Shown here: one piece after another, positions 42,105 to 50,018 of the stretch
How positions within the stretch are numbered: the stretch's first letter is position 1
How the letters are laid out: every line of letters begins with the position of its first letter
Assembly (NCBI RefSeq): GCF_001618005.1
Contig: NZ_LQXA01000047.1
Span: 1-64,000, forward strand
Source of the DNA: Clavibacter tessellarius
Lineage (GTDB): Bacteria > Actinomycetota > Actinomycetes > Actinomycetales > Microbacteriaceae
DNA: 64,000 nt
Reading direction: 5' to 3'
Made by a program: the position numbers and the translations under genes
The notes under the pieces: generated by a model
Seen by the model: the letters and a program-made list of their open reading frames with translations, nothing else
What the model was told of the DNA's origin: nothing
Database searches by the model: none

Positions 42105-42473
42105 ATGGATCCCGCGCCCGGCTACCGCATCGACCCGGGCTCCGCGACCCCTCCCTTCGAGCAGCTCCGCGCCGAGGTCGCGCGCCGGGCCGTCGACGGC
42201 GAGCTGCCGGCTGGCGCGCGGCTGCCGACCGTGCGGGCGCTCGCCGAGCAGGCGGGCGTCGCCGTCAACACGGTCGCGCGGGCCTACAAGGAGCTCGAGG
42301 CCGACGGCGTGATCGAGACGCGCGGACGCGCCGGGTCGTTCGTCGCCGCGCGGGACGACGTGCCACAGGCGCTCCGGGCATCCGCCGCCGCGTACGCGCA
42401 GCTCGCCCGGCGGCTCGACGCCTCCGACGCCGACGCGCGACGGCTGGTGGACGAGGCGCTCGCGGCCGGCTGA
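42105..42473 (+). CDS. GntR-family regulator (YtrA-like, short)
   Basis: A 122-aa protein with the GntR winged helix (PPFEQLRAEVARRAVDGELPAGARLPTVRALAEQAGVAVNTVARAYKELEADGVIETRGRAGSFV) and a short 40-residue helical tail in place of a large effector domain, as in the YtrA subfamily. TAGCCT ends 6 nt before the ATG (leaderless). It sits 103 bp upstream of the NRPS-like gene in the same direction and may control it. Confidence 0.92.
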   Translation: MDPAPGYRIDPGSATPPFEQLRAEVARRAVDGELPAGARLPTVRALAEQAGVAVNTVARAYKELEADGVIETRGRAGSFVAARDDVPQALRASAAAYAQLARRLDASDADARRLVDEALAAG

Positions 42474-42576: not shown

Positions 42577-45500
42577 ATGCCCGAGTCCTCCCCGGAGGCG
42601 GCGACGCCGCACGACGACGCGCAGGCCGTGAGCGCACCGGCTCCGGCTCCCGCTCCCGCTCCCGCTCCCGCTCCCGCTCCCGCTCCCGCTCCCGCTCCCG
42701 CTCCCCCCGTGGCGACCACCGGACCCGGGACCGAGACCGACGCCGATGCCGCCGTCGCCGCGTCAGCCTCCCGCGCGCAGCGCGTCCTCGACGGGGCCGA
42801 CGCCGTCACTCCCCCGCGCACGCTCGTCGACGTGCTCCGCGCGACCGTCGCCGCGCACCCCGACGCGTCCGCCATCGAGGACGGCGACGGCGCGCTCAGC
42901 TACCGCGAGCTCATGGCGCGCGTCGTGCAGGTCGCCGCATCGCTGCGGGAGGCGGGCGTGGAGAAGGGCGACCGGGTCGGGATCCGCATGCCGTCCGGAT
43001 CCCGCGACCTCTACGTCACCGTGCTCGGCGTGCTCGCGGCCGGCGCCGCCTACGTGCCGGTCGACGCGGACGACCCCGAGGAGCGCGCGCGTCTGGTGTT
43101 CGGCGAGGCGCGCGTCGCGGGCGTCGTGACGGGCACGGGCGAGTTCACGCCGCGAGCTGGGGACGCGGACGCCGACGACAACGCCGACGCCGCCGCCGCC
43201 CGGGTCACGGCCGCCGCGCTCCGCATCCTCCCCGCCGCCGCCGCGCACGCCTCCACCTCCGCGCTGCCGCTGGTCGCGCCGCCCGCGCCCGAGGACGACG
43301 CGTGGATCATCTTCACCTCCGGGTCCACCGGCACCCCCAAGGGCGTCGCGGTCTCGCACCGCTCGGCCGCGGCCTTCGTCGACGCCGAGGCGCGCCTCTT
43401 CCTCCAGGACGAGCCGATCGGCCCCGGCGACCGCGTGCTCGCCGGCCTCTCGGTCGCGTTCGACGCGTCGTGCGAGGAGATGTGGCTCGCCTGGCGGCAC
43501 GGCGCGTGCCTCGTGCCGGCGCCGCGCAGCCTCGTCCGCAGCGGCATGGACCTCGGGCCGTGGCTCACGACGCACGGCGTGACCATCGTGTCCACCGTGC
43601 CGACGCTCGCGGCGCTATGGCCCGCGGAGTCGCTCGAGAACGTGCGGCTGCTCATCTTCGGCGGCGAGGCCTGCCCGCCCGAGCTCGGCCAGCGCCTCGC
43701 GACCGACGGGCGCGAGGTCTGGAACACCTACGGCCCCACGGAGGCGACCGTCGTCGCGTGCGCCGCGCCGCTCGGCGGCCCCGGTCCCGTGCGCATCGGC
43801 CTGCCGCTCGACGGCTGGACCCTCGCGGTCGTCGACGCCGACGGCACCCGCGTGCCCGAGGGCGGCGTGGGCGAGCTGATCATCGGGGGCGTCGGGCTCG
43901 CGCGGTACCTCGATCCCGCCAAGGACGCCGAGAAGTACGCCCCGTTCCCCGCGCTCGGCTGGGACCGCGCCTACCGCTCGGGCGACCTCGTGCGCTTCGA
44001 GGCGGAGGGCCTCGTGTTCCAGGGTCGCGCCGACGACCAGGTGAAGGTCGGCGGTCGGCGCATCGAGCTGGGCGAGATCGAGGCGGCGCTGCAGGGCCTC
44101 GACGACGTGCAGGGCGCGGCCGTCGCCGTGCAGACCACGGGCGCGGGGAACCAGGTGCTCGTCGGCTACCTCGTGCCGCGGGATCCCGCGACCTTCTCGC
44201 GCGAGGACGCCGTGCAGCGCCTCCGCGTCGCGCTGCCGGCGGCGCTCGTGCCGCTCATCGGCGTGGTCGAGTCGCTGCCCACGCGCACCTCCGGCAAGGT
44301 CGACCGGGCCGCGCTCCCCTGGCCGCTGCCCGGCGCCGCGGGCGACGAGGGCGCCGACCTCGACGCCGAGCTGCGTCCGCTCGCCGAGATGTGGTCCGCC
44401 GCGCTGGGCACGCCCGTCGCGAGCGCCGACGCGAACTTCTTCGACCTCGGCGGCGGATCCCTGTCGGCGGCGCAGCTCGTGGCCCGGATCCGCTCGGTCG
44501 ACCCCGAGTTCACGGTCGCCGACGTCTACGCCCACCCGCGCCTCGGCGCCATGCACGCGGCCATGGCCGGACGCGCGCCGCGGGCCGTGCGCACCGGGCC
44601 GCAGGTGGACGTGACGCCGACGCCGCGCCGCACCCAGTGGATCCAGACCCTCCTCGGCGCACCCCTGCTCGCCCTGCAGAGCCTCCGCTGGCTCGCGCTG
44701 CTGCTCACGGCGAGCGCGCTGCTGCGGCCGCTCGGCGGCTTCGACGCGCTGCCGGACGTGTCGTGGTGGCTGCTGATCCCCGGCCTCCTCCTCTTCGCGA
44801 CGCCGTTCGGCCGCATGGCGATCTCCGCCGCCTCCGCGCGCCTGCTGCTCCGCGGCCTGACGCCCGGCGACCACCCGCGCGGCGGGAAGTGGCACCTGCG
44901 GCTCTGGCTGGCCGAGCAGATCGCGCAGCAGATCGGCGCGGTCGGGCTCGCGGGCGCGCCCTGGATCACCTACTACGCGCGGGCGCTCGGCGCGCGCATC
45001 GCCGACGACGTCGACCTGCACACGCTGCCGCCCGTCACGGGCATGCTCCGCATCGGCCGCGGCGCCTCCGTCGAGCCCGAGGTCGACCTCTCCGGGTACT
45101 GGATCGACGGCGACACCGTGCGCATCGGCGCGGTGCGCATCGGCGCGGGGTCCACGGTCGGCACGCGCTCGACGCTGCTGCCGGGCACGCGCATCGGCAA
45201 GGGCGCGGAGATCGCGCCGGGATCCGCCGTCTTCGGGCGCGTGCCGTCGGGCCAGCGCTGGGCCGGGTCGCCCGCCGCGCGCGAGGGCAAGGCGCGCGTC
45301 TGGTGGCCCGACCACCGGCCGCCGCGGAACACGCGCTGGGTCGCGGCGTACGGCGCCGCGTCGGTCGCGACCGCGCTCGTGCCGGTGGTGGCGTTCGTCG
45401 CGGGCGGCGGGATCCTCGCGACGGCGATCCGCGGATCCGCCGACCTCGGCGACACGTGGTGGCGCGGCCTCGGCGCGCTCGTGCCCGCCGTGCTCGTGAC

Positions 45501-46818
45501 CGGGCTCGTGCTCGCGCTGCTCGTGGTGGGATCCGTGCGCCTCCTCGGCCTCGGCGTCACGGAGGGCATCCACGCCGTGCGCAGCCGCGTCGGCTGGCAG
45601 CTCTGGACCACCGAGCGCCTCCTCGACCTCGCGCGCACCGTGCTCTTCCCGCTCTACGCCGGCCTCTTCACGCCCGTGTGGCTGCGCCTCCTCGGCGCGC
45701 GCGTGGGCAAGGACGTCGAGGCGTCGACCGTGCTCCTCATCCCCGCGATGACGACGATCCGCGACGGCGCGTTCCTCGCCGACGACACGCTCGTCGCCGG
45801 CTACGAGCTCGGCGGCGGGTGGATGCGCGTCGCCCGCGCCGAGATCGGCCAGCGCGCGTTCCTCGGCAACTCCGGCATGGCGGGGCCCGGCCACAAGGTG
45901 CCGAAGGACGGCCTCGTCGCCGTGCTCTCGGCGGCGCCGACCAAGTCGAAGGCCGGATCCTCGTGGCTCGGCTCCCCGCCCGTCCGGCTCCGGCGCACGG
46001 TCGCCGCCGCCGACGACTCCCGCACGTTCCGGCCGCCGACGCGACTGCGCGTCGCGCGCATCCTCTGGGAGCTGCTGCGCGTCGTGCCCGTCTTCGTGAC
46101 CTGCGCCATCGGCCTGGCCGTGCTCGTGACGCTCGCGGCGATCACCGAGGCGTGGGGTCCGCTCGTCGCGTTCCTGCTCGGCGGCGTGGTGCTGCTGGTG
46201 GCGGGCGCGGTGGCGGCGGCGGTCTCGACGGCGGCGAAGTGGATCCTCATCGGCCGCATCCGCGCGGAGGAGCACCCGCTGTGGTCGTCGTTCGTGTGGC
46301 GCAGCGAGGTGTCGGACGTGTTCACCGAGATGGTGGCCGCGCCCTGGTTCGCGTCCTCGGCCGCCGGCACGCCCGCGCTCGTCTGGTGGCTGCGGAGCCT
46401 CGGCGCGCGCATCGGATCCGGGGTGTGGTGCGACTCGCACTGGCTGCCCGAGGCCGACCTCGTGACCCTCGGCGACGCGTCCACGATCAACCGCGGCTGT
46501 GTCGTGCAGACGCATCTGTTCCATGATCGGATCATGAGCATGGACACCGTCACCCTCGACGCCGGTGCGACCCTCGGGCCGCACAGCGTCATCCTGCCCG
46601 CCGCGCGCATCGGCCCGCAGGCCACCGTGGGCCCCGCGAGCCTCGTGATGCGCGGGGAGCTCGTGCCCGAGGCGAGCCGCTGGAGCGGCAACCCGATCGG
46701 CCCGTGGCGCGAGGTGAAGACGGGTCGGTACCTGCCCGCCGAGGCCGCGCCCGCCGCCGGCGACGCCGCCCCGGCCTCCGCCGAACCCGCCGCTCCCGCG
46801 ACCGCCGGTCCCCGGTGA
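42577..46818 (+). CDS. Pls-type NRPS: adenylation - carrier - membrane/left-handed-helix terminal domain
   Basis: A 1413-aa single-module synthetase. After an Ala-Pro repeat (residues 24-43): adenylation domain of about 70-560 with IIFTSGSTGTPKGVAVSHRS, Asp in SVAFDASCEEMW (amino-acid-type pocket), NTYGPTEATVV, YRSGDLVRFEAEGL and the A10 Lys in PTRTSGKVDRAAL; carrier domain of about 590-660 with FFDLGGGSLSAAQL. The rest alternates transmembrane helices with left-handed beta-helix (hexapeptide) blocks, the terminal domain of epsilon-poly-lysine synthetase-like NRPSs. It probably polymerises or conjugates a single amino acid at the membrane. GGAG precedes the ATG. It overlaps the M1 peptidase gene (GTGA). 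Confidence 0.93.
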   Translation: MPESSPEAATPHDDAQAVSAPAPAPAPAPAPAPAPAPAPAPAPPVATTGPGTETDADAAVAASASRAQRVLDGADAVTPPRTLVDVLRATVAAHPDASAIEDGDGALSYRELMARVVQVAASLREAGVEKGDRVGIRMPSGSRDLYVTVLGVLAAGAAYVPVDADDPEERARLVFGEARVAGVVTGTGEFTPRAGDADADDNADAAAARVTAAALRILPAAAAHASTSALPLVAPPAPEDDAWIIFTSGSTGTPKGVAVSHRSAAAFVDAEARLFLQDEPIGPGDRVLAGLSVAFDASCEEMWLAWRHGACLVPAPRSLVRSGMDLGPWLTTHGVTIVSTVPTLAALWPAESLENVRLLIFGGEACPPELGQRLATDGREVWNTYGPTEATVVACAAPLGGPGPVRIGLPLDGWTLAVVDADGTRVPEGGVGELIIGGVGLARYLDPAKDAEKYAPFPALGWDRAYRSGDLVRFEAEGLVFQGRADDQVKVGGRRIELGEIEAALQGLDDVQGAAVAVQTTGAGNQVLVGYLVPRDPATFSREDAVQRLRVALPAALVPLIGVVESLPTRTSGKVDRAALPWPLPGAAGDEGADLDAELRPLAEMWSAALGTPVASADANFFDLGGGSLSAAQLVARIRSVDPEFTVADVYAHPRLGAMHAAMAGRAPRAVRTGPQVDVTPTPRRTQWIQTLLGAPLLALQSLRWLALLLTASALLRPLGGFDALPDVSWWLLIPGLLLFATPFGRMAISAASARLLLRGLTPGDHPRGGKWHLRLWLAEQIAQQIGAVGLAGAPWITYYARALGARIADDVDLHTLPPVTGMLRIGRGASVEPEVDLSGYWIDGDTVRIGAVRIGAGSTVGTRSTLLPGTRIGKGAEIAPGSAVFGRVPSGQRWAGSPAAREGKARVWWPDHRPPRNTRWVAAYGAASVATALVPVVAFVAGGGILATAIRGSADLGDTWWRGLGALVPAVLVTGLVLALLVVGSVRLLGLGVTEGIHAVRSRVGWQLWTTERLLDLARTVLFPLYAGLFTPVWLRLLGARVGKDVEASTVLLIPAMTTIRDGAFLADDTLVAGYELGGGWMRVARAEIGQRAFLGNSGMAGPGHKVPKDGLVAVLSAAPTKSKAGSSWLGSPPVRLRRTVAAADDSRTFRPPTRLRVARILWELLRVVPVFVTCAIGLAVLVTLAAITEAWGPLVAFLLGGVVLLVAGAVAAAVSTAAKWILIGRIRAEEHPLWSSFVWRSEVSDVFTEMVAAPWFASSAAGTPALVWWLRSLGARIGSGVWCDSHWLPEADLVTLGDASTINRGCVVQTHLFHDRIMSMDTVTLDAGATLGPHSVILPAARIGPQATVGPASLVMRGELVPEASRWSGNPIGPWREVKTGRYLPAEAAPAAGDAAPASAEPAAPATAGPR
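42646..42705 (+). repeat. (GCTCCC)10 hexanucleotide microsatellite coding for Ala-Pro repeats
   Basis: Ten perfect copies of GCTCCC, with one imperfect copy just before. In frame they code an Ala-Pro linker ahead of the adenylation domain. A four-copy run of the same hexamer occurs at 56459-56482 on the opposite coding strand in the CopC-like gene. Confidence 0.95.
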
Positions 46819-48128
46819 GGACCGCCGCGGGTCCCGAGGCCGGCGACGGCTACACCCCCGAGGTCGGCTCCACCGCGTACTCCGTGGAGCGCTACGACCT
46901 CGACCTCGACTACCGCGTGGCCCGCAACCGCCTGAAGGCCCGGGCCGTGATCACCGCCACGGCCCGCGAGACCCTCCCCCGGTTCGAGCTCGACCTCACG
47001 GGCCTCCGCGTGGGCGCCGTGCGCGTCGACGGCCGGCGCGAGACCCGGCACGTGCAGCGGGGCGGGCGCCTCGTGGTCACCCCGGCCGCGCCGATCCCCG
47101 CGGGCGCGTCCTTCACGGTCGACGTCGCCTACTCCGGCGAGCCCGGCCCCCGCCGCACCGTCTGGGGCGAGCTCGGCTGGGAGGAGCTCGGCGACGGCGT
47201 GCTCGTCGCGTCGCAGCCGAGCGGCGCGTCGACGTGGTTCCCCTGCAACGACCGGCCGGACGTGCGGGCCGCGTTCCGGATCCGCGTCGCGTGCGAGGTC
47301 GACTACACGGTGGTCGCGAGCGGCCGCCTCGTCTCCCGGCTCGAGCGCTCGGGCCGCGCCACCTGGACGTACGAGCAGGACGCGCCCACCGCGCCGTACT
47401 TGGCGACCGTGCAGATCGGCCGGTACGCGGAGCGGCGCGTGCCCGCCGGATCCACCGAGGCGGTCTTCGCGTACCCGAAGCCGCGCGAGGCGCGCGTGCT
47501 GCAGGACCTCGCGCTCGTGCCGCGCATGATGGCGTTCTTCGAGACGCTGTTCGGGCCCTACCCCTTCGGCGAGTACCGCGTCGTGGTGACGGACGACGAG
47601 CTGGAGATCCCGCTCGAGGCGCAGGCGATGGCCGTGCTCGGCTCCAACCACGCCGACGGCACCGGCGGATCCGAGCGGCTCGTCGCGCACGAGCTCGCGC
47701 ACCAGTGGTTCGGCAACTCGGTGGGCCTCGCGTCGTGGCAGCACATCTGGCTCAACGAGGGCTTCGCCTGCTACGCCGAGTGGCTGTGGTCGGAGGAGTC
47801 CGGCGGGCCGACCGCGGATCAGCTCGCCCGCCAGCACCACGCGCGCCTCGACCGCTACGGCACGCAGGTCGGCATCGGCGACCCCGGCCCGGAGGCGATG
47901 TTCGACGACGTCGTCTACAAGCGCGGCGCCCTCGCGGTGCACGCGCTCCGGCTGACGCTCGGCGACGCCGCGTGGCGCGCGCTGCTGCTTCGCTGGACGG
48001 ATCCGGCGTGGACGGCTCCCCGCACCACCGCCGACCTCGTCGGCGCGGCCGGGGACGCGGGCGCGCTCCTGCGGGCGTGGCTCGCGGACGTGCCGCTGCC
48101 GCAGCTGCCGAAGGTCGGGCGGCGCTGA
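46815..48128 (+). CDS. M1-family zinc metallopeptidase coupled to the NRPS-like gene
   Basis: A 437-aa aminopeptidase-type protein: N-terminal beta domain of about 20-210 and catalytic domain with HELAHQWFGN (His292, Glu293, His296) and Glu315 in LNEGFACYAEWLW. The usual GAMEN substrate motif is replaced by EAQAMAVLG, and the long C-terminal helical domain of PepN is missing. No signal peptide is seen. The GTG start overlaps the NRPS stop (GTGA, 46815-46818), so it is made together with that synthetase. It may trim, release or resist the product; this is inference. Confidence 0.92.
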   Translation: MRTAAGPEAGDGYTPEVGSTAYSVERYDLDLDYRVARNRLKARAVITATARETLPRFELDLTGLRVGAVRVDGRRETRHVQRGGRLVVTPAAPIPAGASFTVDVAYSGEPGPRRTVWGELGWEELGDGVLVASQPSGASTWFPCNDRPDVRAAFRIRVACEVDYTVVASGRLVSRLERSGRATWTYEQDAPTAPYLATVQIGRYAERRVPAGSTEAVFAYPKPREARVLQDLALVPRMMAFFETLFGPYPFGEYRVVVTDDELEIPLEAQAMAVLGSNHADGTGGSERLVAHELAHQWFGNSVGLASWQHIWLNEGFACYAEWLWSEESGGPTADQLARQHHARLDRYGTQVGIGDPGPEAMFDDVVYKRGALAVHALRLTLGDAAWRALLLRWTDPAWTAPRTTADLVGAAGDAGALLRAWLADVPLPQLPKVGRR

Positions 48129-48160
48129 GGGGCCGCTGGCGACACCTCGGGGTCTGTGCC

Positions 48161-48197
48161 ATCGTCGTTATACTTCGGGTCGATGTATAACAACGAT
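48161..48197. promoter_or_regulatory. 13-bp-arm dyad spanning -10 and start codon of the AAA ATPase gene
   Basis: ATCGTCGTTATAC (48161-48173) and GTATAACAACGAT (48185-48197) are complementary at 12 of 13 positions around an 11-bp centre that contains the ATG. The -10 TATACT lies at 48169-48174. It could be an autoregulatory operator or, in the mRNA, a structure covering the start. Confidence 0.7.
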
Positions 48198-49403
48198 AGA
48201 CGTCATCCGAGCGAGTCGCTGAGCCCCTACACACCGGGATCCGTGCCGACGAGCCTCCCCGGCCGAGCGGACAAGCTGCAGCAGTTCCGCGAGGCCGCCC
48301 AGCGCATGGCATCCGACGGGCTGTTCATCCCTCGAGTGCACGTCGACCACGGACCCCGTGGGATCGGCAAGACGTCGTTGCTCCGGGAGGCGCAACGCAT
48401 CTTCGGCGGGTACCGCATCCGGACCGTGCTGATCACGGCGGATCCCGACGAGGATCTGGTGCGATCCCTGCTCGGTGAGCTCCGGCAGGTGGTGGGAACC
48501 GGCACGCGTCTGCGGAAGGCCGCACTCGAGGCGATCGACTCGGCGACGGTCACATTGGGGGCGCCCGGCATCGTGCAGGTCGGCGTCTCGCTGACCCCGG
48601 AGCGCACGCCGACGGCCGCGTCGGCGAAGCAGATCCAGCAGGCGATCCGCGCCGCGATCGACGCGGTGATCCATGACGGGGACGCGGGGATCGCACTGCT
48701 CATCGACGAGATCCAGGAGGCGGACCCCGAGAGCCTGCGCACGCTCGCCTACGCATGGCAGGAGATGGCCCCGCTTCGCGCCTTCGAACCCGGGCAGCCG
48801 CGGACCGCGCTCTTCGCCGTCGGGCTGCCCGGCGCCCCGACGAAGATCAACAAGGCGGTGACGTTCAGCGAGCGCTTCAGCTTCCAGCCCCTGCACGGCC
48901 TGTCCGACGCCGGCGCGCGGGAGGCGCTCCAGGCCACGGCTGCGACCGTCGCCGTCGCCTGGGACGTAGCGGCCCTCGATCGGGCCGTATCGGAATCGAG
49001 CGGCTATCCCTACAAGGTCCAGCTGATCGGCGATGCGTCTTGGAGGGCGGCCTGCAGGCGACTCGCCCGAGAGGGCTTGCGACCGGATGACGCCATCGCG
49101 CTCGACGATGTCGTGGCCGCGCTGCCGTCCGTCGATGCGGAGATGGAGACGCTCTTCACCGCACGCTGGAGGTCGGCCAGCCCAAGCCAGCAGGACATGC
49201 TCGTCGCGGTCGCGCGGCTGGGCGGAACGGACGTGAAGCGCGCCGACCTCGCCGATGCCCTGGCGACTACCACTCGAGCCATCTCGGTCGCCCGCCAGAA
49301 GCTGCTGGACAAGGGGCTCCTCGACGCGAACAAGCACGGGCACCTGTCGTTCACCGTGCCGGGGTTCACGGAGTTCGTGCTGGACCAGGCGGAGAACGAG
49401 TGA
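48183..49403 (+). CDS. AAA ATPase (Orc1/Cdc6-like or STAND-type P-loop protein)
   Basis: A 406-aa protein: Walker A GPRGIGKTSL (about 57-66), Walker B ALLIDEIQE, then sensor-like regions and a C-terminal winged-helix-like segment (SPSQQDMLVAVARLGG ... TTTRAISVARQKLLDKGLLDANKHGHLSFTVPGF). The layout resembles archaeal Orc/Cdc6-type ATPases and AAA_16 proteins; in bacteria these often occur as orphan or mobile genes. TATACT ends 8 nt before the ATG, and a long dyad covers the start. It is less GC-rich at third positions than neighbours. No partner gene is next to it. Confidence 0.85.
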   Translation: MYNNDRRHPSESLSPYTPGSVPTSLPGRADKLQQFREAAQRMASDGLFIPRVHVDHGPRGIGKTSLLREAQRIFGGYRIRTVLITADPDEDLVRSLLGELRQVVGTGTRLRKAALEAIDSATVTLGAPGIVQVGVSLTPERTPTAASAKQIQQAIRAAIDAVIHDGDAGIALLIDEIQEADPESLRTLAYAWQEMAPLRAFEPGQPRTALFAVGLPGAPTKINKAVTFSERFSFQPLHGLSDAGAREALQATAATVAVAWDVAALDRAVSESSGYPYKVQLIGDASWRAACRRLAREGLRPDDAIALDDVVAALPSVDAEMETLFTARWRSASPSQQDMLVAVARLGGTDVKRADLADALATTTRAISVARQKLLDKGLLDANKHGHLSFTVPGFTEFVLDQAENE

Positions 49404-49430
49404 ACCCGCGTCTCCCCTGCCGCGTCCCGT

Positions 49431-50018
49431 TCAGCGGTCGAGCGCGCGGATCTCGACCCTGAGCGACTCCTCACCGGCGCGCCGCACACGGCGGGCGATG
49501 GCGACCACGAGGTCGGGCGCGAGCGCGACCTCCATGAGGCGGTAGCGCGCGGGCTCGCCGTCGATCCAGGCGAGCAGGCCGCGCGCGTCGTCCGCGTCGT
49601 CGGCGAACCGCACGCGCTCCGGGTCGACGCGGAGCCCGCGGCCGTCGGCCTTCAGCACCGCCTCGATCCGCACCCATCGCCCGAGCGTCATCCCGGGCGG
49701 CGTCGCGCGACCGCGCGGCTCGGCGTCGATCCCGATCGGGCCGTCGGCGCTGACCGCGACGACCACGGCGTCGCCCGCGTGCGCGACGCTGGCGTGCAGG
49801 CCGTCGAGCGCGCGGGATCCGCCGAGCACCGGGCGACCGTGCGGCCTCCCGCAGTCCGGGCATCGGGCGCGCACGGTGACGTCGGCGGGATCCGCGCCCA
49901 CGATCTCCGCGGCGAGCGCCCGCAGCGCGTCGCGCCCGGCGGTGGTGCGGGCGGCGCGATCGGCGGATGCGTCGACCGGCACCACCGACACGTGCACGGC
50001 GGCGGGAGCGGGGGTCAC
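49431..50018 (-). CDS. 4'-phosphopantetheinyl transferase
   Basis: A 195-aa Sfp-like protein: LHASVAHAGDAVVVAVS, the Mg-binding GIDAEPRG and WVRIEAVLKADGRGL, a variant of the WxxKEAxxK motif in which the usual Lys is Ile. It would load coenzyme A's phosphopantetheine onto carrier domains; the only carrier domain in this window is in the NRPS-like protein 3 kb upstream, a likely partner. A CPDCGRPHGRP segment may be a small metal site. The GTG start is 6 nt after TAGGGT (leaderless). Confidence 0.85.
   Translation of the reverse strand: MTPAPAAVHVSVVPVDASADRAARTTAGRDALRALAAEIVGADPADVTVRARCPDCGRPHGRPVLGGSRALDGLHASVAHAGDAVVVAVSADGPIGIDAEPRGRATPPGMTLGRWVRIEAVLKADGRGLRVDPERVRFADDADDARGLLAWIDGEPARYRLMEVALAPDLVVAIARRVRRAGEESLRVEIRALDR

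What the first reader, a model, noticed from the sequence alone, without database searches (positions are those of the whole stretch)
42577..50018. Pls-type single-module NRPS, coupled M1 metallopeptidase, and a nearby phosphopantetheinyl transferase
Seen: an A-T-membrane/hexapeptide synthetase (1413 aa) whose stop overlaps the start of an M1 peptidase that lacks the GAMEN motif and the PepN C-terminal domain; a GntR gene just upstream; a PPTase 3 kb downstream. Known: this NRPS architecture is that of epsilon-poly-lysine synthetases. Inferred: the locus makes an amino-acid homopolymer or conjugate at the membrane, and the peptidase processes the product or gives self-resistance. Fixed translational coupling of the two is the unusual part.
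Basis: partly seen in the sequence, partly recalled or inferred. Interest (0 to 1): 0.72.

Follow-up and report, generated by a model that had tools for sequence, protein, structure and literature searches.

The report
Polylysine synthetase with coupled peptidase
This is a known kind of bacterial gene pair, an enzyme that strings lysines into an antimicrobial polymer and a metal peptidase made together with it, but here, as in most relatives examined, the peptidase appears to stay inside the cell rather than on its surface as in the version studied at the bench.

Summary
A 1413-aa single-module NRPS (42577-46818) of the curated Pls/PosA family overlaps an M1 metallopeptidase gene by the four bases GTGA; a phosphopantetheinyl transferase-like gene follows on the other strand. 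The adenylation pocket, DAESIGTVVK, equals that of the solved Streptomyces epsilon-poly-L-lysine synthetase, so epsilon-polylysine is the predicted product. The "unusual" coupling is in print: S. albulus pldII, a polylysine-degrading peptidase, is translationally coupled to pls, and Corynebacterium variabile pls sits in an operon with a peptidase. The pairing is almost fixed: 116 of 118 Microbacteriaceae genomes with the synthetase have the peptidase directly downstream; the other two end at contig edges. In a phylum-wide draw the peptidase goes with lysine pockets (18 of 19) and not with others (0 of 5). The 65 synthetase-linked M1 sampled fall on one branch. What I found nowhere in print: only the S. 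albulus-type Streptomyces branch (9 of 9) has a twin-arginine-like signal; 0 of 118 other linked M1 genes, this one included, has a hydrophobic N-terminal segment. So the surface self-protection model does not transfer; here the peptidase most likely destroys polylysine inside the cell (inferred). A new variant of a known system, of moderate interest.

The parts
42577..46818 (+). Single-module NRPS of the Pls/PosA family (1413 aa): A domain, carrier domain, membrane terminal domain; predicted epsilon-poly-L-lysine synthetase
   Evidence: ORF; TIGR02353 724 bits, cut-off 423; best PDB match 7wew, epsilon-poly-L-lysine synthase A domain
42838..44316 (+). Adenylation domain (aa 88-580); ten-residue pocket DAESIGTVVK at aa 296, 297, 300, 339, 360, 362, 384, 392, 393, 574
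   Evidence: pocket identical to 7wew; code positions placed by conserved core motifs, GrsA numbering recalled
44380..44553 (+). Peptidyl carrier (T) domain with DLGGGS motif
   Evidence: PF00550, 41.5 bits
44641..46698 (+). Membrane terminal domain with hexapeptide (acetyltransferase-like) stretches
   Evidence: TIGR02353 positions 2-695 of 695; PF00132; five hydropathy peaks over 1.6 in this domain
46815..46818 (+). GTGA overlap: M1 start GTG and NRPS stop TGA (translational coupling)
   Evidence: 4-nt overlap in 61 of 120 distinct relatives, 1-nt in 17
46815..48128 (+). M1 metallopeptidase, 437 aa, no signal peptide, no PepN C-terminal domain; PldII-like
   Evidence: on one branch with the Streptomyces PldII-type M1; no hydrophobic N-terminal segment
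47607..47624 (+). IPLEAQ in place of GAMEN (aa 265-270); Glu268 kept
   Evidence: Glu in 159 of 159 aligned rows (some genomes occur twice)
47688..47759 (+). Zinc site HELAH-18-E (aa 292-315)
   Evidence: HEXXH-18-E in 158 of 158 M1 hits (some genomes occur twice)
49431..50018 (-). Phosphopantetheinyl transferase-like gene (195 aa), convergent to M1
   Evidence: relatives within 3 kb downstream of M1 and convergent in 66 Microbacteriaceae genomes
42105..42473 (+). Small GntR-family regulator upstream; possible local regulator, not a conserved part
   Evidence: upstream in 6 of 6 other genus regions

Best explanation
The locus is an epsilon-poly-L-lysine operon. The A domain activates L-lysine, the carrier domain (armed by a PPTase, probably the neighbouring one) holds it, and the membrane domain joins lysines through alpha-carboxyl to epsilon-amino bonds and passes the chain outward. 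The translationally coupled M1 peptidase is a PldII-type polylysine hydrolase that stays in the cytoplasm and breaks polymer that ends up inside the cell, protecting the cell and returning lysine. In epsilon-polylysine every residue has a free alpha-amine next to the bond to be cut, so the kept alpha-amine-binding Glu of an aminopeptidase can engage any residue, and the missing PepN lid leaves the site open to a long chain. Shown: architecture, lysine pocket, coupling, co-occurrence, common branch, absence of a hydrophobic N-terminal segment. Inferred: product, substrate of the peptidase, cytoplasmic site of action, role of the neighbouring PPTase.
For: TIGR02353 well over cut-off. Pocket identical to 7wew, and the same in 91 of 93 readable loci; a second-position Ala is the Pls residue, against Met in PosA and Phe in PDAP/PDAB (PMC10522769, passages). 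A C. variabile Pls made epsilon-polylysine of 26-35 residues in S. coelicolor (PMC8117764, passages). PldII reported as translationally coupled, endo-type and needed for self-protection (PMC9223678, passages). M1 immediately downstream in 116 of 118 synthetase-bearing genomes, and the strong M1 in only 1 of the other 181. In the phylum draw, M1 next to 18 of 19 lysine-pocket synthetases and 0 of 5 others. The 65 linked M1 in the tree form one branch, support 98. The M1 of Streptomyces sp. MspMP-M5 (A domain 93% identical to 7wew) is 1404 nt, the length reported for pldII. Signal: 9 of 9 in the S. albulus-type branch, 0 of 118 in the rest, 25 of 30 in unlinked M1. PPTase neighbour.
Against: No product or activity is shown for this locus or for any relative lacking the signal. 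The window M1 and the PldII-type M1 are only 43% identical. Lysine-pocket synthetases without a nearby M1 exist: six named Streptomyces/Kitasatospora loci (L068, L070, L072, L075, L076, L098) and L160, and two with pocket DAESIGTVIK (L114, L131); the genome of L075 has an M1 of linked strength elsewhere, that of L068 has not. The absence of a signal rests on a hydropathy rule whose 1.45 threshold I set after seeing the values (a first rule, 1.9 anywhere in the first 60 residues, caught none of the nine); it is no signal predictor and no localisation. Two other PPTase candidates in the genome score over the Pfam cut-off.
Confidence: 0.6

Rival explanations
1. The peptidase is a maturation enzyme: it trims the growing or finished polymer to set chain length rather than to destroy it.
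For: Co-translation would keep synthetase and trimmer in step; repression of pldII in S. albulus is reported to change chain lengths (PMC9223678, passages).
Against: [quoted passage not shown] a cytoplasmic enzyme cannot trim exported polymer.
Confidence: 0.15
2. The peptidase hydrolyses ordinary peptides and is coupled for regulatory reasons only, unrelated to polylysine.
For: Sequence alone does not show substrate; the nearest solved relative is a putative zinc metalloprotease, 6a8z.
Against: Tracks lysine-pocket synthetases and not other pockets in the phylum draw, nearly absent without the synthetase (1 of 181 genomes), and on one branch with the S. albulus-type M1.
Confidence: 0.12
3. The synthetase makes another cationic polymer (ornithine, diaminobutyrate, diaminopropionate or beta-lysine).
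For: The Pls/PosA family has members for each of these (PMC10522769, passages).
Against: Pocket identical to 7wew at all ten positions. Neighbouring ORFs other than those named here were not family-searched, so a precursor gene is not excluded.
Confidence: 0.08

Closest known systems
Streptomyces albulus pls-pldII (epsilon-poly-L-lysine synthetase and type II degrading enzyme)
   Same: Same synthetase architecture and ten-residue pocket; peptidase gene next to and translationally coupled with pls; the linked M1 sampled fall on one branch.
   Different: The S. albulus-type M1 has a twin-arginine-like signal, and PVENQ in the GAMEN place in the two rows printed, and PldII activity is reported on the cell surface (PMC9205021, passages); the window M1 has no signal and IPLEAQ. 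The S. albulus sequence itself was not in my set; a close relative stood in for it.
Corynebacterium variabile pls-peptidase operon
   Same: Lysine Pls in an operon with a peptidase; product confirmed as epsilon-polylysine by expression in Streptomyces coelicolor (PMC8117764, passages).
   Different: I saw no characterisation of its peptidase in the passages; its sequence was not in my set, so its signal is untested.
PosA of Acinetobacter baumannii (delta-poly-L-ornithine synthetase)
   Same: A-T-membrane terminal domain layout (PMC10522769, passages).
   Different: Pocket DMEHNGTVSK, described as a single-gene operon (passages).
Putative zinc metalloprotease 6a8z (Deinococcus M1, organism recalled)
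   Same: Nearest solved structure by sequence: M1 of 474 residues, matched over residues 8-433 of the window M1.
   Different: Tie to a polylysine synthetase not tested.

Membership tests
Pls/PosA family NRPS (TIGR02353) | Terminal domain over the curated cut-off | tested here: met
   724.2 bits against 423.1, positions 2-695 of 695
Pls/PosA family NRPS (TIGR02353) | One A and one T domain, no condensation or thioesterase domain | tested here: met
   Pfam finds AMP-binding, AMP-binding_C, PP-binding and Hexapep only
Pls/PosA family NRPS (TIGR02353) | Six transmembrane helices in three pairs | tested here: inconclusive
   Five hydropathy peaks over 1.6 in the terminal domain (692-710, 933-951, 966-984, 1169-1187, 1196-1214); a sixth was not over threshold
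epsilon-poly-L-lysine synthetase (Pls) | Lysine pocket as in 7wew | tested here: met
   DAESIGTVVK in both
epsilon-poly-L-lysine synthetase (Pls) | Makes epsilon-poly-L-lysine | not testable with these tools
   Needs expression and mass spectrometry
PldII epsilon-polylysine-degrading enzyme | Zinc peptidase gene translationally coupled to pls | tested here: met
   GTGA overlap; HELAH-18-E
PldII epsilon-polylysine-degrading enzyme | Same phylogenetic group as the S. albulus-type enzyme | tested here: met
   65 of 65 linked M1 rows in one branch, support 98, 30 unlinked rows outside; one unlinked orphan (G293) falls inside (quick method)
PldII epsilon-polylysine-degrading enzyme | Exported to the outside of the membrane | tested here: not met
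   No hydrophobic N-terminal segment from the GTG or in the open frame upstream of it; hydropathy rule only
PldII epsilon-polylysine-degrading enzyme | Hydrolyses epsilon-polylysine | not testable with these tools
   Needs enzyme assay
Classical M1 aminopeptidase (PepN type) | GAMEN motif | tested here: not met
   IPLEAQ; only the Glu is kept
Sfp-type phosphopantetheinyl transferase (P0003) | GxDxE and WxxKEAxxK motifs (recalled), ACPS domain | tested here: inconclusive
   Motifs present with K replaced by I in WVRIEAVLK; Pfam 20 bits, below 25; a relative in L085 is over the cut-off

The most novel reading that the evidence does not exclude
In most actinobacteria that carry a lysine Pls, epsilon-polylysine is not mainly a secreted antibiotic but a polymer that is turned over inside the cell: the synthetase and a signal-less hydrolase are made in lockstep, so the polymer is held at a low, dynamic level (for instance as a binder of polyanions, a lysine or charge buffer). 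The surface-exposed PldII of S. albulus and its kin would then be the special case. It would fit that no product was seen in C. variabile cultures or in C. glutamicum expressing the C. variabile synthetase; but the authors put the former down to regulation, and the synthetase protein was not detected in C. variabile (PMC8117764, passages).
Probability: 0.12. Interest if true: 0.65.

Novelty: new variant of a known kind. Interest (0 to 1): 0.4.

Why it matters
epsilon-Polylysine is a commercial food preservative, and the self-protection of its producers is called largely unknown in a review (PMC9205021, passages). The studied peptidase works on the cell surface; if most relatives keep theirs inside, the surface model holds for one Streptomyces branch only, and the silence of some pls genes might in part be due to internal breakdown, which one gene removal would test.

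Tried and rejected
Rejected: that the NRPS-M1 overlap is new. Rejected: that GntR is a general part of the system. Rejected: that the M1 is found apart from the synthetase in most relatives. Considered and rejected: that S. albulus-type PldII and the signal-less M1 were recruited independently; the tree puts the 65 linked M1 sampled on one branch against 30 unlinked M1 (quick method, SH-aLRT support, some long branches). Considered: the neighbouring PPTase as the only one in the genome; not so, four ACPS-like matches, two over the cut-off and two below, P0003 being one of the latter.

Weak points of the counts. The 117 strong M1 rows are the rows down to E 1.9e-98; the next row is 4.0e-75. One search counts 117 of 123 synthetase places, in which one split gene (G076) counts twice; per genome this is 116 of 118. 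The six places without are three second copies, two genes cut by contig ends and one fragment of a split gene (G250). In one search, 17 loci could not be read, I think because the script read one strand only. In one search the 40 regions are not one sample: 25 come from the phylum draw, the rest I chose, three of them because they had no adjacent M1 and nine because they had one; over all 40 the counts are 27 of 30 lysine pockets with M1 and 0 of 8 others, two unread. Junction classes take the start codon nearest the synthetase stop; 21 of 120 are 'other', of which the large negative values look like the script running past the stop and were not resolved. In one search the 118 include the window itself and six same-genome duplicates. 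The unlinked M1 are ten that I chose and twenty given as loci. The 80 named loci were chosen by likeness to the S. albulus A domain and are biased to lysine pockets. The tree took every second signal-less linked M1.
Full report
What is there. One search lists the ORF 42577-46818 (1413 aa). One search shows its stop TGA at 46816-46818 inside GTGA; the frame of the M1 peptidase starts with that GTG and runs to 48128 (437 aa). Pfam and NCBIfam give A domain, carrier domain and the Pls/PosA terminal domain for the first, and the two M1 domains without a PepN C-terminal domain for the second. A GntR-type gene lies 103 bp upstream, and a phosphopantetheinyl transferase-like gene (49431-50018, minus strand) lies beyond an AAA ATPase gene (48156-49403).

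Substrate. The best solved match of the A domain is 7wew, epsilon-poly-L-lysine synthase. The ten pocket residues, placed by conserved core motifs (GrsA numbering recalled), are DAESIGTVVK in the window and in 7wew. The PosA paper proposes that the second residue sets substrate length: Phe for PDAP/PDAB, Met for PosA, Ala for Pls, and that Glu at the third binds the side-chain amine (PMC10522769, passages). The window has Ala and Glu, so lysine is the expected substrate. Of the 93 loci that the script could read (17 more could not be read), 91 have the same ten residues and two have DAESIGTVIK.

Is the pairing real and general? In 299 Microbacteriaceae genomes (a draw of the same size and tallies) 118 have the synthetase domain at E 1e-50 or better and 117 have a strong M1 relative. 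In 117 of 123 synthetase places an M1 lies directly downstream on the same strand; by genome 116 of 118, since one split gene counts twice. The two remaining genomes have the synthetase running into a contig end. Three of the other places are second, different copies in one genus, and one is a fragment of a split gene. One genome of the 181 without synthetase has an M1 of this kind (G293). Among 80 named loci, from Streptomyces to Mycobacterium, Nocardia, Rhodococcus, Arthrobacter and Microbacterium, 70 have an M1 match in the locus, one of them (L139) 2.1 kb away; of the ten without, two (L064, L120) end at a contig edge. Of 120 distinct junctions 61 overlap by four bases and 17 by one, 21 more lie within about 20 bases and 21 are other or unresolved. 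The six other genus members examined all have the four-base overlap.

The peptidase goes with the lysine pocket. The phylum draw (396 genomes, 25 with a match) gave 25 places outside the family, all fetched: 19 have DAESIGTVVK and 18 of these have the M1; 5 have other pockets (DIWQSTAEVK-like, DFEYNGTVTK) and none has it; one was unreadable. Three second copies in one genus (DFECLSVVTK), which I picked because they had no adjacent M1, agree. Against this, six named Streptomyces/Kitasatospora loci with the lysine pocket lack the M1, as do L160 in the draw and two loci with DAESIGTVIK. The genome of one of the six (L075) has an M1 of linked strength in another place, that of another (L068) has not.

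What is already known. The introduction of a 2022 paper states that pldII of S. albulus is translationally coupled to pls, lies on the exterior of the membrane and is considered an endo-type aminopeptidase; the paper gives its ORF as 1404 bp (PMC9223678, passages). A 2021 paper reports a C. variabile pls in an operon with a peptidase, a different context from the other three synthetases, shows by expression in S. coelicolor that its product is epsilon-polylysine, and finds homologues in Microbacterium among others (PMC8117764, passages). The original PldII paper is not held.

What differs. An M1 from Streptomyces sp. MspMP-M5, whose A domain is 93% identical to 7wew, is 1404 nt long and begins TRCSRRALLRGAALLPLAATAADG after its start codon, a twin-arginine-like signal. 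A first rule (mean hydropathy over 1.9 in any 13 residues of the first 60) caught none of the nine such M1 and flagged L090 for a strand inside the domain. I then looked only at the stretch before the first conserved strand (back to the upstream stop, at most 70 codons) and, after seeing the values, used 1.45: 9 of 9 M1 of this Streptomyces branch reach it, 0 of 118 other linked M1, window included, do so (highest 1.30), and 25 of 30 unlinked M1 do. The window M1 scores below zero even with the open frame upstream of the GTG counted. A tree of 96 M1 proteins puts the 65 linked M1 sampled on one branch (support 98), divided into the signal-bearing Streptomyces branch (99) and the signal-less rest (97); the G293 orphan falls among the latter. 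Some Streptomyces carry the signal-less type (L084, L110, L133). Since the unlinked relatives are mostly exported, loss of the signal in the larger branch is the simpler reading (inference). [quoted passage not shown] I found no paper on the location of the peptidase in other pls operons: searches gave no paper; one search gave three, of which I looked only at passages of PMC9205021. Searches gave no paper on Clavibacter polylysine or on the PPTase neighbour. The library holds open-licence papers only.

The active site. HEXXH-18-E is present in 158 of 158 hits, the catalytic Tyr and the Glu of the GAMEN place in 159 of 159 rows, some genomes occurring twice. The GAMEN place reads mostly [IVD]P[LIV]EA[QH], and PVENQ in the two S. 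albulus-type rows printed. Residues shared by both linked branches and rare in unlinked M1 include Gln134, Cys144, Pro221, Asp231, Pro266 and Asn301; these may shape the polylysine site (inference).

The PPTase. Relatives of P0003 occur in 17 of 18 genomes of the genus and, at E 1e-7, in 78 of 299 family genomes; in 66 of these 78 one lies within 3 kb downstream of the M1 and convergent to it, in 8 elsewhere, and 4 have no strong M1 in my table. In four of the eight (G035, G110, G260, G298) the coordinates put it 2.1-2.2 kb before the terminal domain on the same strand, that is, about at the start of the synthetase gene. In five of the six other genus regions the PPTase abuts the M1; in the window and G166 an AAA ATPase gene lies between.

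Mechanism. Lysine is loaded, polymerised through the epsilon-amine and passed through the membrane domain; the coupled peptidase, lacking a signal, meets polymer only inside the cell. Each residue of epsilon-polylysine has a free alpha-amine beside the scissile carbonyl, so an enzyme that binds an alpha-amine with a conserved Glu can cut anywhere along the chain; this fits the reported endo-type action of an aminopeptidase family member and needs no lid domain (inference from the chemistry). The likely role is clearance of internal polymer. No product or activity has been shown for this locus.

The host. A genome told to be of the same family (G071) has a contig of 414,928 bases, the length of the Planctomonas psychrotolerans record of L090, which the tree tool lists under Microbacteriaceae; so the family is inferred from a length match. 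One genus member has a contig of 3,063,596 bases, which I recall as Clavibacter nebraskensis; the genus name is recalled, not computed. Bench tests are proposed only in laboratory strains and harmless relatives.

Noticed in passing
window 48156-49403 (+): A 415-aa AAA_16 ATPase gene sits between the M1 and the PPTase in the window's genome and G166 (93% identical) and in no other locus searched; in the five other genus regions the PPTase abuts the M1. Looks like a lineage-specific insertion.
   Followed up: partly
L131:9491-11674 and L114:9566-10786: Synthetases with pocket DAESIGTVIK (Arthrobacter hankyongi, Kocuria polaris) have no M1; downstream are a dihydrodipicolinate synthase-family gene (lysine supply, L131) and a heparan-alpha-glucosaminide N-acetyltransferase-like gene (both). 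Possibly a polylysine-acetylating variant.
   Followed up: partly
L172, L173, L174: Three genomes of one genus (probably Planctomonas, by a contig-length match) carry a second Pls-like synthetase with pocket DFECLSVVTK and no M1, alongside one with M1.
   Followed up: partly
L068, L070, L072, L075, L076, L098: Streptomyces/Kitasatospora lysine-pocket synthetases without the peptidase downstream (six loci, five genomes); how these cells deal with the polymer is open.
   Followed up: no
G035, G110, G260, G298: In one family genus (g35) the PPTase relative appears to lie just upstream of the synthetase on the same strand instead of downstream (coordinates).
   Followed up: no
L177 (G293:C16:12626-13939): An orphan M1 of the linked branch in a genome without the synthetase; long branch.
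   Followed up: no
window 42577-42720 region: The N-terminus of the synthetase holds a run of about a dozen Ala-Pro repeats.
   Followed up: no
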